This document shows positions 9,161-26,441 of a stretch of 37,307 nt of DNA, piece after piece. Within the stretch, counting starts at the first letter, position 1. Each line of letters opens with the position of its first letter. The notes beneath the pieces were generated by a model. The model was given only the letters and a program-made list of their open reading frames with translations. It ran no database searches and was not told the origin of the DNA. Both the position numbers and the translations under genes were made by a program. Origin of the DNA: an archaeon (lineage in GTDB: Archaea > Thermoproteota > Nitrososphaeria > Conexivisphaerales > UBA164); contig JAJYTP010000003.1 in the NCBI GenBank assembly GCA_021792955.1, positions 82,037-119,343 on the forward strand, read 5' to 3'.

Positions 9161-10939
9161 ATGGCATCACGGCCCATCATCAAGGAACTGATACTTGAAA
9201 ACTTCATGAGCTACGAGTACGGCCGGATACCCCTTGAGGAGGGGCTGAATGTCATAGCCGGGCCCAACGGCGCTGGAAAGAGCACAATTCTTGTAGCAAT
9301 CTCACTAGTGATGGGTCAGCTTTATACCGAAAGGTCAAAGAAGCTTTCAGACCTTGTAAGGAGAGGTTCAGGGATGGCAAGAATAAGCCTGATGCTGGAT
9401 AACCGTGCTGTGGACGGCAAAAGGCCCTTTCCATTCCAGAAGGACGAAGTGATGCTGTCAAGGTATATCAGGAAGGATGGCTCCTACTGGTTCGAAATAG
9501 ATTATCACGAAATGTCCAGGGTTGAAGTGGTGGAACTCCTCAAAAAGGTAGGCATCAACCCAGATAACTACCTGATCATAATGCCACAAGGCGTCATTGA
9601 TGAATTTATCCTGATTAAGCCTGACCAGAAGCTCATGATGATGGAGGAAGCCCTGGGCATATCCTCGATAAGGGAAAACCTACATGATGCAAGGGTAAGG
9701 CTGGCAAAGATATTAAGCGACGAAGAGCAGTACCAATCGTTATTAGAAAGGGCTGTAGAAACGATGGGCCGATGGAAGGAGGAGTACGATAAACTAGTGC
9801 GGGCAAAGGAGCTAAAAAAGGAACTTGAGTCGCTGAACGGTGAGCTGGCCTGGTCATCTGTTGCGAAGGTCGAGAAAGCGCTTGAATCTCTGGGGGAGAA
9901 GCTCCGGCTTGCACAGGAGGAAAAGGATTCTCTGGAGAAATCCTCGGCCAGCGCATTGGCCGTTTTCAATGAAATTAATGACGGGCTCGATCGTAATATC
10001 GACCTTGCTCAGGACATGGCAATAAAGGTATATGATGGTAAAGGTGGTGAGCGCAAGGATCTCATTGACCTGCAAAACCTGCTGGGTGGATTAAAAGGTT
10101 CTGTGCAGAAGTTAGTAGAGGCGTATGGCGAGGTTACAGTGCTCATGTACAGGGTACGGTTAATGGAAAGGGAGGTCAAACAGCTGGATTCGTCAATTAA
10201 GGCATCGGCCGAAGAGCTCAAGGCCTTGGAAGATGAAGCTAGGAAAGGTTCCCCCCGTCCTAAAAGCGTTCGTACTCAGACAGAAGTGGAGGATAGCATA
10301 AGACTGGTGAACGCAGAGCTTAAGGTACTAGGTGAAGTGAACCAGGAAGCTGAGAAGGTATATATGGAGTTCAGAGATAAGATCGATCAGTACAAGGACA
10401 GGCTTGTAGAAGTGAGGAGGAATAAGGAAATGACCCAAAAGGAGATCGTAGAGAGGGCTAATTCCTGGAGGATCACAATTAAGGAAATAATGGATAAGGT
10501 GAACAGGAAGTTCTCCGAAATAATGGCTACGATAGGGGCGTCCGGAATGGTCATGCTGATAAATGACCAGGACCCTGAAGCCGCAGGTCTGAACATACTA
10601 ACTAATTTTTCTGGAGGTGGGATGGTGGCGCTCGACAGCTTCTCTGAGAGCGGCGGGGAGCTCAGCGCCTCGGTTACCGCCTTTCTGCTGGCGGTTCAGA
10701 ACTACATACTATCGCCGTTCAGAGCTCTAGATGAATTTGACGTGCATATGGACCCGGTGATAAGGGGGAGGTTCTTCAAATCCATCTATAACATGTTCAG
10801 GAATGACGTAGGCGTCCAGTACGTCGTTATAACACCGGCCCTCTTTTCGTTTTATGATCAAAGCATAAATTACATAATGGTACAAAAGGCTGCGGTAGGC
10901 AGTCAGGCTAAGGTGGTCAAGGTTGAAGGAAAGAAATGA
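9161..10939 (+). CDS. Short SMC5/6-like ATPase without a hinge
   Basis: The 592-aa protein is organised like a miniature SMC. Walker A is GPNGAGKST (residues 34-42) after the SMC-type start LILENFMSYEYG. The Q-loop region is IIMPQGVIDEFI (about residue 145). Coiled-coil arms span about 170-290 and 330-450. The signature SESGGELSAS (about residue 497) is followed by Walker B SPFRALDEFDVHMDPV (about residues 514-529). The Q-loop and the PFRALDEFD-x-x-MD Walker B look like eukaryotic Smc5/Smc6 more than canonical prokaryotic Smc. Canonical SMCs are about 1200 aa with a hinge; here the middle (about 290-330) is short, with no Gly-rich hinge and no CxxC zinc hook. The kleisin-like gene overlaps its stop. 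Inferred role: DNA-bridging or loop-forming ATPase with the two next gene products. Confidence 0.85.
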   Translation: MASRPIIKELILENFMSYEYGRIPLEEGLNVIAGPNGAGKSTILVAISLVMGQLYTERSKKLSDLVRRGSGMARISLMLDNRAVDGKRPFPFQKDEVMLSRYIRKDGSYWFEIDYHEMSRVEVVELLKKVGINPDNYLIIMPQGVIDEFILIKPDQKLMMMEEALGISSIRENLHDARVRLAKILSDEEQYQSLLERAVETMGRWKEEYDKLVRAKELKKELESLNGELAWSSVAKVEKALESLGEKLRLAQEEKDSLEKSSASALAVFNEINDGLDRNIDLAQDMAIKVYDGKGGERKDLIDLQNLLGGLKGSVQKLVEAYGEVTVLMYRVRLMEREVKQLDSSIKASAEELKALEDEARKGSPRPKSVRTQTEVEDSIRLVNAELKVLGEVNQEAEKVYMEFRDKIDQYKDRLVEVRRNKEMTQKEIVERANSWRITIKEIMDKVNRKFSEIMATIGASGMVMLINDQDPEAAGLNILTNFSGGGMVALDSFSESGGELSASVTAFLLAVQNYILSPFRALDEFDVHMDPVIRGRFFKSIYNMFRNDVGVQYVVITPALFSFYDQSINYIMVQKAAVGSQAKVVKVEGKK

Positions 10940-11654
10940 AGACGTAAGGAGGATAATAGATCTCCCTGATACGCTTGCAAGAAGGGGGGGTGACCCCTTC
11001 GCTATAGACGTAAGCCAGCTTCTTGGGGAGCTCAAGGGGACCAAAGGGGACAAGACTACCAGGCTCATCCTTGAAGCGGAGGCCCTCAATTCCGTTTCAA
11101 AGGTAGTAAAATATCAGGAGGAATGGGTTATAGAAGCCCTGCGAGGCATTAAGATAGACCCTCAGCTCATAAGGGAAAAGCTAGATAAAATGCAAGTCAA
11201 GGACATCGCTAGACTGCTTGCCAGAGACATATATCCATGCATGGGCATAAGGAGGTTATCAGGATCGAGGATCAGAGATGCCTTGGACTACTTTAGCCTC
11301 ACGGAACCCTGGGGCCGGGCACAGAGGATGGGTTCGGTCGTCTTCAGAAACAGAGAAAACACCGGTATCAAAATTGAGGAGATGGACCTTGAGAAGGAGG
11401 CGGAAGAGCTCTATGAGAAAATCAGGGAGAAACTCGAAGATGGCCCAATGGACTATAGCGCCCTCATTGGTGCAAGTGATAACCCGTTGCTTACGGCCTA
11501 CTGCATAGCTCAACTTTCGAGCGCGGGGAGGATAGCCATAAGGAAGGACCCGCTGGCAAACGACATTAGCATAATTAAGGCCCTGGAGGGCGGTTCATTG
11601 GTAAGCGTTGCGATAAGGCTGCCCAAGGTACAAAATAAGGCCGGGCGAGCGTGA
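10923..11654 (+). CDS. Kleisin-like (ScpA/Nse4-type) partner
   Basis: The 243-aa protein starts with TTG at 10923, with GGTGG about 7 nt upstream and a 17-nt overlap with the SMC-like gene. The N-terminus (DLPDTLARRGGDPFAIDVSQ) resembles the ScpA opening, in which a helix is followed by a DPWDIDV-like stretch. The middle is helical and charged (about 55-150). The C-terminus (about residues 150-215) reads as a small winged helix (GPMDYSALIGASDNPLLTAY, then IAQLSSAGRIAIRKD), as in kleisins, where it caps an SMC head. I cannot assign it by sequence alone with certainty; size, domain order and its position between an SMC and a tandem winged-helix gene are the main arguments. It would bridge the two SMC heads and bind the 11732 product. 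Confidence 0.55.
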   Translation: MKERNEDVRRIIDLPDTLARRGGDPFAIDVSQLLGELKGTKGDKTTRLILEAEALNSVSKVVKYQEEWVIEALRGIKIDPQLIREKLDKMQVKDIARLLARDIYPCMGIRRLSGSRIRDALDYFSLTEPWGRAQRMGSVVFRNRENTGIKIEEMDLEKEAEELYEKIREKLEDGPMDYSALIGASDNPLLTAYCIAQLSSAGRIAIRKDPLANDISIIKALEGGSLVSVAIRLPKVQNKAGRA

Positions 11655-11731
11655 TATAGCGTTTGCCACAGCCAAGTCCACGGTCTGTAAAATGGGGTCA
11701 AGCTTAAAATGCAGGCTGATTGTAGCTGTGG

Positions 11732-12283
11732 GTGAGATGGCCATTGTCAGAAGAAGAAGATGAAATTCGTAAAAAGGGCCTAAAGGCGCTGAGGCTTCTG
11801 ATGCTGGACACTTCAGTGCAGCCGGGCCTGAAAGGGTGGGAGCTCAGACGCCGCCTCGGTAAGGGATATGCAGACGCATTAAAAATAGCTACCATGGAGG
11901 CAGATAGGATAGGTCTCAAGATAGTTACGGTGCCTGATGAGGAGTTTCCGGAAGAAATTGACAAGGCTAGGTACGTCCTTCAGACCAAGGAGCCGCTCAC
12001 CGACCCGGACTATGGAGGGTGGCTTAGAATAGAGGAGGCCGCCGCCCTAGCAATCCTCATCATCGAACTTTCTATAAGGGGGGGTGTGATCCAAAGGGAT
12101 ACATCTGAAAAGGTTCTAAACAAGAAGTTACCGATCTGGAGAATAAAGCAAATACTGGAAAAGCTTAAGCGACTTGGTTACCTGACCGAAGAGGGCGCCC
12201 TGATCAGGAAGGGCTGGCGGGCCGAGATAGAAATAGATGAACCGGGATTTCTAAGGGACCTGGTAAACGCTAGTTCTACATAG
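11732..12283 (+). CDS. Tandem winged-helix KITE protein, Nse3/MAGE- or ScpB-like
   Basis: The 183-aa protein appears to contain two winged-helix units. The first covers about 15-80 (LRLLMLDTSVQ to GLKIVTVP). The second covers about 95-170 (LRIEEAAALAILIIELSIRG, a helix pair, then ILEKLKRLGYLTEEGALIRKG). The link RYVLQTKEPL, followed by a new helix ending ELSIRGGVI, recalls MAGE/Nse3 domains, where Y-x-L is followed by I-L-x-L-I-x-x-x-G. KITE proteins of this shape (ScpB, Nse1/Nse3, MukE) bind kleisins. The start is GTG at 11732, or TTG at 11744, which has GGTGAG 7 nt upstream. A TATA-like AGCTTAAAATG at 11701 may give an internal promoter. Moderately confident in the fold; Nse3 versus ScpB affinity is open. 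Confidence 0.55.
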   Translation: MRWPLSEEEDEIRKKGLKALRLLMLDTSVQPGLKGWELRRRLGKGYADALKIATMEADRIGLKIVTVPDEEFPEEIDKARYVLQTKEPLTDPDYGGWLRIEEAAALAILIIELSIRGGVIQRDTSEKVLNKKLPIWRIKQILEKLKRLGYLTEEGALIRKGWRAEIEIDEPGFLRDLVNASST

Positions 12284-21527: not shown

Positions 21528-21974
21528 TCATTGGCTAACCTTGATTGGTGTTGGATTTACAGAAAATGGGTCCTTCCAGGGTTCCAAACAGGGTAGCACA
21601 TTGTCTGAACTAATTGCTATATGTAGGTTTTTTGGAAAGCCTCTGCCTTTTAGCCTGAAGAATAGTTCCTCCCTCTTCCTCCTGTGAGGAACCATCAGGA
21701 ACTTGACCGCTAGCACCGCTTCCCTCTTCTTGTAGGCAGCAAATTCTTCCATGAACTTAACTATCTTATCAAGCTGTTCTGCCCTTACGCTTATGTAATC
21801 ACGCGAGGAGCTCTTTGCTTCGATTGCGACGAGCCTGCCTTCGTTATTGTTTATCGCCAGGACGTCCGGCAGGAACGGAGAGGGGGAGCCAAGCCTCACC
21901 GCGAACCATCCGGCCCTCTGAAATTTTTTAACAAGCTGATCTTCCCAGTCATAACCCTTCTTCCGGTTGTTCAC
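21528..21974 (-). CDS. hjc: Archaeal Holliday junction resolvase Hjc
   Basis: The 148-aa protein has the Hjc nuclease pattern: KGYDWEDQLVKKFQRAGWFAVRL with the first catalytic Glu, SPSPFLPDVLAIN with the metal-binding Asp, and GRLVAIEAKSSS with the E-x-K pair. Hjc cuts four-way DNA junctions during recombination and replication restart. The start is GTG at 21974, placed directly after the phosphoglucose isomerase stop, so translation is coupled to an otherwise metabolic operon. A C-terminal tail of about 45 residues goes beyond the usual core of about 125. The PINA-type ATPase later in the window (30716) belongs to a family that acts with Hjc in Sulfolobus. Confidence 0.9.
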   Translation of the reverse strand: MNNRKKGYDWEDQLVKKFQRAGWFAVRLGSPSPFLPDVLAINNNEGRLVAIEAKSSSRDYISVRAEQLDKIVKFMEEFAAYKKREAVLAVKFLMVPHRRKREELFFRLKGRGFPKNLHIAISSDNVLPCLEPWKDPFSVNPTPIKVSQ

Positions 21975-24878: not shown

Positions 24879-26441
24879 CTATACCGAGAGAAGCCCTTCG
24901 AGTTCGTTCCAACTGATCTTGCTCCTGTTAACCCACATGAACTTATTCCTTAGTGAAGCTGAATAGACCTTGTCAAGGGTTAACTGGCTTTTGTCGCACC
25001 ATCCCTTGATCACTCTTGGGTCAACGTAATTCTTGAAAGAAGTTATTAAATTATAGTCCTTAGACATTCTGGCGAACTTGAGCCCCATCTTGTACTTGTT
25101 GACAACCTGGAGGCGTCTCTGCTTTGCCTTTGGAGTTGTAGGCGGATTCTTTCGCAGATTATCGATCCTTTCCTCCAATCTCCTCATCCTCTCGTCCCAA
25201 TTCTTGGGAGGGGTTCTCTTATGATTAAGCGCTATAGCGGCATTGAGGTTAGCCACCTTTGTGTGATATATCTTCTGATATTCTGGCAGTTTATCCGGCC
25301 TTTTTACAGAGTTCAGATATCTGAAGACTTCAGTGGTTCCCCTGTAAGTCCTGAACACCTTTGCCGTTAGACCCTTTACTTTTTTACCAAGGAAATTATT
25401 TACGTGCCTTGATGTTATTCCGGCAAATAGCAGGGGGGTATCACCGTCATCCATAAAGGACCTGAGATTGTTAGCCAGTGAAGCCGGCGGGTCCACTATC
25501 TCCTTTTCCCAATGTACGCTATCTTTGCCTAGGAAGTCGAACCTGATCCTGTGATCTATAAAGGAGACGTGTTCCTTTCTCAACGTGGTGGCCCCAACGG
25601 TATCTGCCTCCTCCTTTGAGTCCTTTTCATCACCAACCCTCATCGCGAGCGAATCTATAAGGTAACACGCGGTGGCCACCTTGCGTGTTGTAATGTCCTT
25701 GGCATCCAATCGCTCTGTTATATATTTCCTTATTTCGCTCATCCTTGCTCCAAGCTTGAGAGCTCTGTCGTACTTCTCCTTGTTCCTCTGTTGTGAGAGG
25801 CTTGAACTTTCATGAAGCCAGACGTACTTCCTCTTCCCCGTAAGGCGATCATCCCAGTAGGCTATCCACATGGCATCTGGTCTGCTTATCACGCGTTTCC
25901 AGTTTCCTTGTGGGATCGGCGCCCCTTTGTCAAGGTTCAGGACTATATCCGATTCTGATATGGGAGGCTTCCAGCGTCCACGCAAAGGGTGATTTCCCCT
26001 TCCTATGAACAGGCCGGGTGGTTCGACAGCCCAGTTAGCTATAGGAACCGCTTTACCATCCATTAACGCGAATCCATACTTTTCTTTAAGCTTCTCCCTT
26101 GCTTCCTTTTTTAAGGCTCGTTCCTCCTTTGAGAGCTCCTTCTTTGCCATCCTATCCTGCTCGATAGCCCTGACAAAATCCGAAAAATCCATATCCTTTA
26201 TCCTTATTCGGCGATATTCCTCGGGTAGCTTTGGTAGGAAATCGCGTTCAAAGTTGGCGATAAACGTATCATCCACGGTGCCCAGCTTTCTAGCATATGC
26301 GAAGGCCATCATTTCTGCTTCATCGGATAGCTCAATGGGTCTCTCCCCGATCCGTAGCTTAATGCCCCTGTGGCTATACCTCTCGCCAGTGTAAACACCG
26401 TTGTGCCTTAGCGTGCTCCAGTAAGAAGCCATTCTCCTCAT
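24879..26441 (-). CDS. Eukaryote-type DNA topoisomerase IB
   Basis: The 520-aa protein contains core and C-terminal domains. The catalytic set is complete: Arg268 in MRVGDEKD before EADTVGATTLRKEH, the Lys in the following beta hairpin, KVFRTYRGTTEV with the second Arg, His407 in LNHKRTPP, and Tyr472 in FKNYVDPRV. Between them is a charged linker (about 415-445). It relaxes supercoils of both signs through a 3'-phosphotyrosine without ATP. In archaea TopoIB is known from Thaumarchaeota and close relatives, so it is the best lineage marker here. The eukaryotic disordered N-terminal region is absent. It lies 7 nt downstream of pelota, so one transcript is likely. Alternative start ATG at 26432. 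Confidence 0.95.
   Translation of the reverse strand: MRRMASYWSTLRHNGVYTGERYSHRGIKLRIGERPIELSDEAEMMAFAYARKLGTVDDTFIANFERDFLPKLPEEYRRIRIKDMDFSDFVRAIEQDRMAKKELSKEERALKKEAREKLKEKYGFALMDGKAVPIANWAVEPPGLFIGRGNHPLRGRWKPPISESDIVLNLDKGAPIPQGNWKRVISRPDAMWIAYWDDRLTGKRKYVWLHESSSLSQQRNKEKYDRALKLGARMSEIRKYITERLDAKDITTRKVATACYLIDSLAMRVGDEKDSKEEADTVGATTLRKEHVSFIDHRIRFDFLGKDSVHWEKEIVDPPASLANNLRSFMDDGDTPLLFAGITSRHVNNFLGKKVKGLTAKVFRTYRGTTEVFRYLNSVKRPDKLPEYQKIYHTKVANLNAAIALNHKRTPPKNWDERMRRLEERIDNLRKNPPTTPKAKQRRLQVVNKYKMGLKFARMSKDYNLITSFKNYVDPRVIKGWCDKSQLTLDKVYSASLRNKFMWVNRSKISWNELEGLLSV

What the first reader, a model, noticed from the sequence alone, without database searches (positions are those of the whole stretch)
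9161..12283. SMC-like ATPase, kleisin-like and KITE-like genes in one block
Three adjacent, mostly overlapping genes have the composition of an SMC complex: a head-and-arm ATPase, a protein with kleisin-like ends, and a tandem winged-helix protein with MAGE/Nse3-like spacing. The SMC protein is unlike canonical prokaryotic Smc, so this looks like a second, compact SMC5/6-like or JET/MukBEF-analogous complex. It could serve chromosome organisation or foreign-DNA defence. Seen: Walker A, signature and Walker B, gene order, overlaps. Inferred: the partners' roles. Relatives of Smc5/6 in archaea have been discussed, so novelty needs checking.
Basis: partly seen in the sequence, partly recalled or inferred. 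Interest (0 to 1): 0.88.

Follow-up and report, generated by a model that had tools for sequence, protein, structure and literature searches.

The report
Archaeal three-gene Smc5/6-type DNA complex
Three adjacent archaeal genes encode a stripped-down relative of the eukaryotic Smc5/6 chromosome-protecting machine (motor, bridging strap and DNA-gripping subunit), suggesting that the whole machine, and not only its motor, existed in archaea before eukaryotes.

Summary
In detail: three co-directional genes lie at 9161-10939, 10923-11654 and 11732-12283 (592, 243 and 183 aa). They are one conserved block. In 28 of 28 relatives with intact contigs the three are contiguous, and partner genes are present or absent together.

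Each subunit separately points to the eukaryotic Smc5/6 complex. The SMC family profile scores Smc6 and Smc5 above every other SMC in the PDB, and a tree groups it with them (UFBoot 100). The second protein is a kleisin: eukaryotic Nse4_C run blind over 121 archaeal genomes gave 30 matches, all in this gene. The third is a tandem winged-helix (KITE) protein whose model matches Nse3/MAGE and Nse1 first; 13 of 16 blind MAGE matches fall just 3' of the kleisin.

It differs from Smc5/6: one SMC gene, one KITE gene, no Pfam-detectable hinge, no RING, no Nse2/5/6. It is not ASRP/coalescin, JET or Smc-ScpAB.

The archaeal 'SMC5/6-related' SMC subunit was known. I found no description of the partners in the held literature, which lacks bioRxiv and the key 2021 paper. 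Function is inferred: an ATP-driven DNA clamp or loop extruder for junction and topology control.

The parts
9161..10939 (+). SMC subunit (592 aa), archaeal SMC5/6-related ATPase; no Pfam hinge and no zinc hook
9260..9283 (+). Walker A GPNGAGKS (residues 34-41)
   Evidence: Sequence; G34 P35 N36 G37 G39 K40 S41 invariant in 44
10649..10660 (+). ABC signature SGGE (residues 497-500)
   Evidence: Invariant in 44
10712..10765 (+). Walker B region SPFRALDEFDVHMDPVIR (residues 518-535), like human Smc6 SPFRCLDEFDVYMD and human Smc5 CPFRVVDEINQGMDP
10923..11654 (+). Kleisin subunit (243 aa), Nse4-like; TTG start inside the end of the SMC gene
10923..11228 (+). Predicted N-terminal helical domain with a long helix (residues 44-74), the position of the SMC-neck-binding part of kleisins
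   Evidence: Structure model; neck binding is inferred
11388..11582 (+). C-terminal winged helix of the kleisin (residues 156-220), Nse4_C / SMC-cap-binding type
   Evidence: (ScpA C-WHD 4i99_C rmsd 2.1, TMt 0.77)
11732..12283 (+). KITE subunit (183 aa), Nse3/MAGE-Nse1-like tandem winged-helix protein
11750..11986 (+). First winged helix (residues 7-85)
   Evidence: Structure model
12029..12232 (+). Second winged helix (residues 100-167), with conserved GWRxxxEID near its end
   Evidence: the part that matches the MAGE model in relatives

Best explanation
The three genes encode an archaeal SMC5/6-type complex. Shown here: an SMC ATPase of the Smc5/6 clade, an Nse4-family kleisin and an Nse3/Nse1-family KITE protein, encoded as one conserved unit. 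Inferred: two copies of the short SMC pair through their ATPase heads; the kleisin binds the neck of one SMC with its N-terminal helices and the cap of the other with its C-terminal winged helix, making an asymmetric ring; a KITE dimer sits on the kleisin's middle and presses DNA onto the ATP-engaged heads (a clamp); and the ATP cycle loads, holds or reels DNA. Most likely role (inferred, about 50%): handling of branched, supercoiled or intertwined DNA during replication and recombination, as for eukaryotic Smc5/6; general chromosome folding is next. One SMC gene and one KITE gene here, against Smc5+Smc6 and Nse1+Nse3 in eukaryotes, fits a simpler homodimeric form from which the eukaryotic complex arose by duplication and added parts.
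For: SMC: profile of 44 relatives versus the PDB ranks Smc6 (1.7e-62) and Smc5 (2.6e-56) above Pyrococcus Smc (1.1e-49), Smc2 (3e-45) and all others. The C-terminal part of P0001 alone has human Smc5 as best hit (1.9e-16). Trees join it with Smc5+Smc6 (UFBoot 100), and a tree that puts it with canonical SMC is rejected (AU p=0.0115). Kleisin: best PDB sequence hits are yeast Nse4 (6e-5) and human NSE4-type EID3 (3e-4), ahead of ScpA. Pfam Nse4_C matches 27 of 44 members and, searched blind over 121 archaeal genomes, gives 30 matches, all 30 inside this gene. The structure model's top nine fold matches are all kleisins. KITE: model pLDDT 88, two winged helices. The five best fold matches are Nse3/MAGE-G1/Nse1 chains, then MukE and JetABC follow. 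13 of 16 blind MAGE matches, including the best eight, lie immediately 3' of the kleisin. Linkage: in 28 of 28 relatives with intact contigs all three are adjacent, and all eight genomes of family f7 in that set lack both partner genes, as do 17 of 17 in the wider sample for the kleisin. Conserved neighbours in relatives include an Lhr-type helicase (36 loci) and, in Methanomethylicota, topoisomerase IB.
Against: P0002 and P0003 themselves do not reach Nse4_C or MAGE; their assignment rests on family members, profiles and folds. P0003's best single Pfam hit is a weak PIN match (E 0.004, below cut-off). The kleisin model is only moderate (pLDDT 72) with no fold match below E 0.001, and the KITE fold matches have low TM (0.36-0.39), presumably because the two domains pack differently. 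P0001 has no detectable hinge, a defining part of eukaryotic Smc5/6 arms. Branching order within the Smc5/Smc6/archaeal clade is unresolved, and Smc5/6 plus canonical SMC excluding the archaeal family is not rejected at 5% (AU p=0.07). No interaction, ATPase or phenotype data exist here, and the complex itself was not modelled.
Confidence: 0.85

Rival explanations
1. A second condensin-like complex of the bacterial/archaeal Smc-ScpAB type that merely diverged, with chromosome compaction and segregation as its job.
For: Kleisin and KITE logic is shared with ScpA/ScpB; ScpA C-WHD is among the structural matches; in one closed genome (G012) the triad was the only non-Rad50 SMC found, with no hinge SMC and no ScpA, so it may fold the chromosome there.
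Against: Canonical SMC with a hinge coexists in most relatives, with its own ScpA beside it where detectable (G011, G014, G016). SMC, kleisin and KITE all rank Smc5/6 subunits above Smc/ScpA/ScpB. Grouping with canonical SMC is rejected.
Confidence: 0.08
2. An anti-plasmid or anti-virus system (JET/Wadjet, Lamassu or MADS-like) that uses SMC-kleisin-KITE architecture.
For: Architecture resembles JetABC; P0001 gives PADLOC hits to mad3 (91 bits) and LmuB (71 bits); eukaryotic SMC5/6 silences circular extrachromosomal DNA (PMC12656486, abstract).
Against: Partners have no PADLOC match. The large conserved neighbour is an Lhr-type helicase and no nuclease like JetD was seen. The distribution is stable across whole lineages (29 of 33 non-f7 genomes in the relatives set, ours included, have the kleisin; about half of 121 genomes across the phylum do), unlike patchy defence islands.
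Confidence: 0.05
3. A member of the archaea-specific SMC-related protein family (ASRP: coalescin/ClsN, Sph) acting alone.
For: Similar length (~590-690 aa), short arms, archaeal.
Against: NCBIfam ASRP model gives 43.8 bits against a cut-off of 300; the zinc hook typical of ASRPs (PMC9389158) is absent: 0 of 44 members have CxxC in the arm and P0001 has no cysteine; it has conserved partner genes.
Confidence: 0.02

Closest known systems
Eukaryotic Smc5/6 complex (Smc5-Smc6-Nse4 with Nse1-Nse3)
   Same: SMC of the same clade, Nse4_C-type kleisin, Nse3/Nse1-type KITE; same three-part core
   Different: One SMC gene and one KITE gene; SMC half the length with no detectable hinge; no RING, Nse2 SUMO ligase or Nse5/6 seen in the block
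[quoted passage not shown]
   Same: Archaeal SMC that clusters with Smc5/Smc6; P0001 very probably belongs to this group
   Different: That work, as far as readable here, describes the SMC only; partners, operon and the likely lack of a hinge were not found in held texts (original paper not held)
Smc-ScpA(B), bacterial/archaeal condensin
   Same: SMC plus kleisin plus (in bacteria) KITE
   Different: Separate genes in the same relatives; long arms with hinge; lower scores for all three subunits
MukBEF / MksBEF / Wadjet (JetABCD)
   Same: SMC, kleisin and KITE in one block; KITE fold matches MukE and JetABC chains
   Different: SMC sequence far away; no JetD-type nuclease; KITE matches Nse1/Nse3 better
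ASRP family (coalescin ClsN, Sph)
   Same: Short archaeal SMC-like ATPases
   Different: Zinc hook in ASRPs; different clade; no partner operon described

Membership tests
Smc5/6 complex | SMC ATPase of the Smc5/Smc6 clade with Walker A, signature and Walker B | tested here: met
Smc5/6 complex | Nse4-family (delta) kleisin with Nse4_C winged helix | tested here: met
   At family level: (30 of 30 blind matches); P0002 alone below threshold
Smc5/6 complex | KITE subunit of the Nse1/Nse3 (MAGE) kind | tested here: met
   (top five folds); sequence signal weak
Smc5/6 complex | Two different SMCs (Smc5 and Smc6) and two different KITEs | tested here: not met
   One gene of each found per genome
Smc5/6 complex | Hinge domain between long arms | tested here: not met
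   No SMC_hinge in P0001 or G000; a very divergent mini-hinge is not excluded
Smc5/6 complex | Nse1 RING, Nse2 SUMO ligase, Nse5/6 | tested here: not met
   Not in the three proteins; genome-wide absence not searched
Smc5/6 complex | ATP-dependent DNA clamping or loop extrusion; role in recombination and replication | not testable with these tools
   Needs biochemistry and genetics
Kleisin superfamily | N-terminal helical domain, middle linker, C-terminal winged helix | tested here: met
ASRP (coalescin/Sph) | Zinc hook CxxC at the arm tip; match to ASRP model | tested here: not met
JET/Wadjet | JetC-type SMC with JetD nuclease, Jet partners | tested here: not met
   no such neighbour
Smc-ScpAB | Long hinge SMC with ScpA kleisin | tested here: not met

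The most novel reading that the evidence does not exclude
This is a living representative of the ancestral Smc5/6 machine: a hinge-less (or mini-hinge) homodimeric SMC with one Nse4 and one Nse1/3 ancestor. It would show that the entire core of Smc5/6, not only its ATPase, predates eukaryotes and that SMC clamping can work without a canonical hinge; in some archaea it may be the only SMC complex.
Probability: 0.6. Interest if true: 0.88.

Novelty: new variant of a known kind. Interest (0 to 1): 0.78.

Why it matters
Smc5/6 is the least understood eukaryotic SMC complex, and its KITE subunits (Nse1, Nse3) link it to prokaryotic complexes. An archaeal complex with homologous SMC, kleisin and KITE would date the whole core to before eukaryotes and explain Smc5/Smc6 and Nse1/Nse3 as duplications. 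It would also give a minimal three-protein system, apparently without a hinge, for testing how SMC clamps and loop extruders work. Archaeal Smc-ScpA is reported to lack a KITE subunit (PMC7055376); this would be an archaeal SMC complex that has one.

Tried and rejected
Literature: several searches found no paper on archaeal Nse4/Nse3 partners. The key 2021 paper is not held, and two searches failed because of a slash in a term. Single-sequence Pfam/NCBIfam on P0002 and P0003 gave nothing useful (weak PIN for P0003); only family-level profiles worked. phmmer with P0001 alone put Pyrococcus Smc first; the family profile reversed this. A first tree script failed on a pattern. The concatenated tree has no outgroup, so its constraint tests do not decide the root; I rely on the C-terminal tree rooted with Rad50. 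Support labels printed after re-rooting are shifted along the root path; one search gives them per split. The Smc5 N-terminal heads were not available, so Smc5 is represented by its C-terminal head only, and eukaryotic sequences were taken from printed PDB alignments. Asgard archaea could not be sampled.

Full report
OBSERVATION. The window holds three co-directional genes: 9161-10939 (592 aa, P0001), 10923-11654 (243 aa, TTG start, P0002) and 11732-12283 (183 aa, GTG start, P0003). The first two overlap by 17 nt; the third starts 77 nt after the second. P0001 has SMC_N (1e-30, above cut-off). P0002 and P0003 alone match no family above threshold.

CONSERVATION. One scan of species-representative genomes found 332 relatives of P0001 and kept 78 loci, in Nitrososphaerota, Bathyarchaeota, Methanomethylicota, Hecatellales and ANME-1/Methanophagales-type archaea. 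Downstream of the SMC gene a ~250 aa protein (K) and a ~190 aa protein (T) recur: K in 57 and T in 61 of 79 loci, nearly always on the same strand and in the same order. In Methanophagales loci the partners are often not adjacent. In whole genomes of 40 relatives plus our own, K and T were found in the same 29 genomes. Reading coordinates across, the three are contiguous in 28 of 28; in the 29th (G023) the contig begins inside K and T follows. All eight genomes of family f7 in that set lack the partners and carry only long hinge SMC and Rad50-like hits. In a draw of 121 genomes across the phylum, 59 had a K match (58 strong, one marginal) and 17 of 17 f7 genomes had none.

SMC SUBUNIT. A profile of 44 relatives (A3) searched against PDB sequences ranks Smc6 (1.7e-62), then Smc5 (2.6e-56 to 1.5e-51), then Pyrococcus Smc (1.1e-49), Smc2 (3e-45) and the rest. 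The Walker B block of the family, SPFRAVDEFDVHMDPxNRE, reads like human Smc6 SPFRCLDEFDVYMD and human Smc5 CPFRVVDEINQGMDP. Maximum-likelihood trees give 99.3/100 (two heads) and 97.3/100 (C-terminal head, Rad50-rooted) SH-aLRT/UFBoot for archaeal+Smc5+Smc6 apart from canonical SMC. In the Rad50-rooted tree, placing the archaeal family with canonical SMC is rejected (AU p=0.0115); excluding it from a Smc5/6+canonical group is not (p=0.07); order inside the clade is open. The protein lacks the Pfam SMC hinge, which was found in most relatives' canonical SMCs but not in our incomplete genome, and it has no zinc hook.

KLEISIN. The K profile finds yeast Nse4 (6e-5) and human NSE4-type EID3 (3e-4) first among PDB sequences, then a designed tandem-repeat protein, then ScpA (0.014-0.037). 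Pfam Nse4_C matches 27 of 44 members, best 1.5e-7. As a blind test, Nse4_C was run six-frame over 121 archaeal genomes: 30 matches, and comparison shows that all 30 lie inside K. The model of P0002 has N-terminal helices including one of 31 residues, a poorly defined middle and a C-terminal winged helix; its nine best fold matches are kleisins (Rad21, ScpA C-domain, Nse4, condensin kleisin, MukF), though none is below E 0.001.

KITE. The model of P0003 (pLDDT 88) is two winged helices. Its five best fold matches are chains of Nse1-Nse3-Nse4 and MAGE-G1-NSE1 structures (2e-5 to 9e-5), followed by MukE and, two ranks on, JetABC. Pfam MAGE matches 5 of 44 members (best 3.6e-4). A blind MAGE search gave 16 matches in 121 genomes; 13, including the eight best, are immediately 3' of K.

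TWO SYSTEMS SIDE BY SIDE. Most relatives also carry a ~1120-1200 aa canonical SMC. Where ScpA was detectable beside it (G011, G014, G016) it lies far from the triad. In the closed genome G012 the only SMC-type proteins detected were the triad SMC and Rad50, with no hinge SMC and no ScpA.

CONTEXT. Conserved neighbours in relatives are an Lhr-type helicase (36 loci), an unknown 227-aa protein (36 loci), a metallophosphoesterase (13 loci) and, in Methanomethylicota, topoisomerase IB divergent from the SMC gene (7 loci). In this window an Hjc-like resolvase and topoisomerase IB lie about 9 and 13 kb downstream of the block. This hints at recombination and topology but is only suggestive.

MECHANISM. 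By homology with KITE-based SMC complexes (reviewed in PMC10512200), I propose an SMC homodimer bridged asymmetrically by the kleisin, with a KITE dimer holding DNA on the ATP-engaged heads. Composition is shown; assembly, stoichiometry and activity are inferred. The role is uncertain: junction and topology management about 0.5, chromosome folding about 0.3, defence about 0.1.

NOVELTY. The archaeal SMC5/6-related SMC is known (Yoshinaga and Inagaki 2021, cited in PMC9389158). Searches of the held library found no account of its kleisin and KITE partners, but the 2021 paper and bioRxiv are not held, so priority cannot be settled here. I therefore call it a new variant of a known kind.

Noticed in passing
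L096 (G012:C1:1236800-1241000) and L097: In a closed relative genome the triad SMC and Rad50 were the only SMC-type proteins detected; no hinge SMC or ScpA. The triad may be the sole SMC complex there.
   Followed up: partly
L049:3525-4208 (-), and 35 other loci: A conserved ~227 aa protein with no Pfam match sits near the SMC gene, nearly always on the opposite strand, in 36 loci; function unknown.
   Followed up: partly
L042:9216-12071 (-): Lhr-type helicase (DEAD, WH_Lhr, DEAD_assoc) is a frequent convergent neighbour (36 loci).
   Followed up: partly
L046:904-2442 (-); window 24879-26441 (-): Eukaryote-type topoisomerase IB lies divergent and adjacent to the SMC gene in Methanomethylicota, and 12.6 kb away in the window.
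   Followed up: partly
L014, L021, L026, L031, L043, L062, L065, L073 (Methanosarcinales/Methanophagales MAGs): These carry the SMC but partners are often not adjacent or not found; only diverged K- or T-like hits in L045 and L026. Partner loss or relocation in this lineage is unexplained.
   Followed up: no
L023:8883-10257: The kleisin-KITE pair stays together but lies 2.7 kb downstream of the SMC gene.
   Followed up: no
window 21528-21974 (-): Hjc-like Holliday junction resolvase in the same 37 kb window.
   Followed up: no
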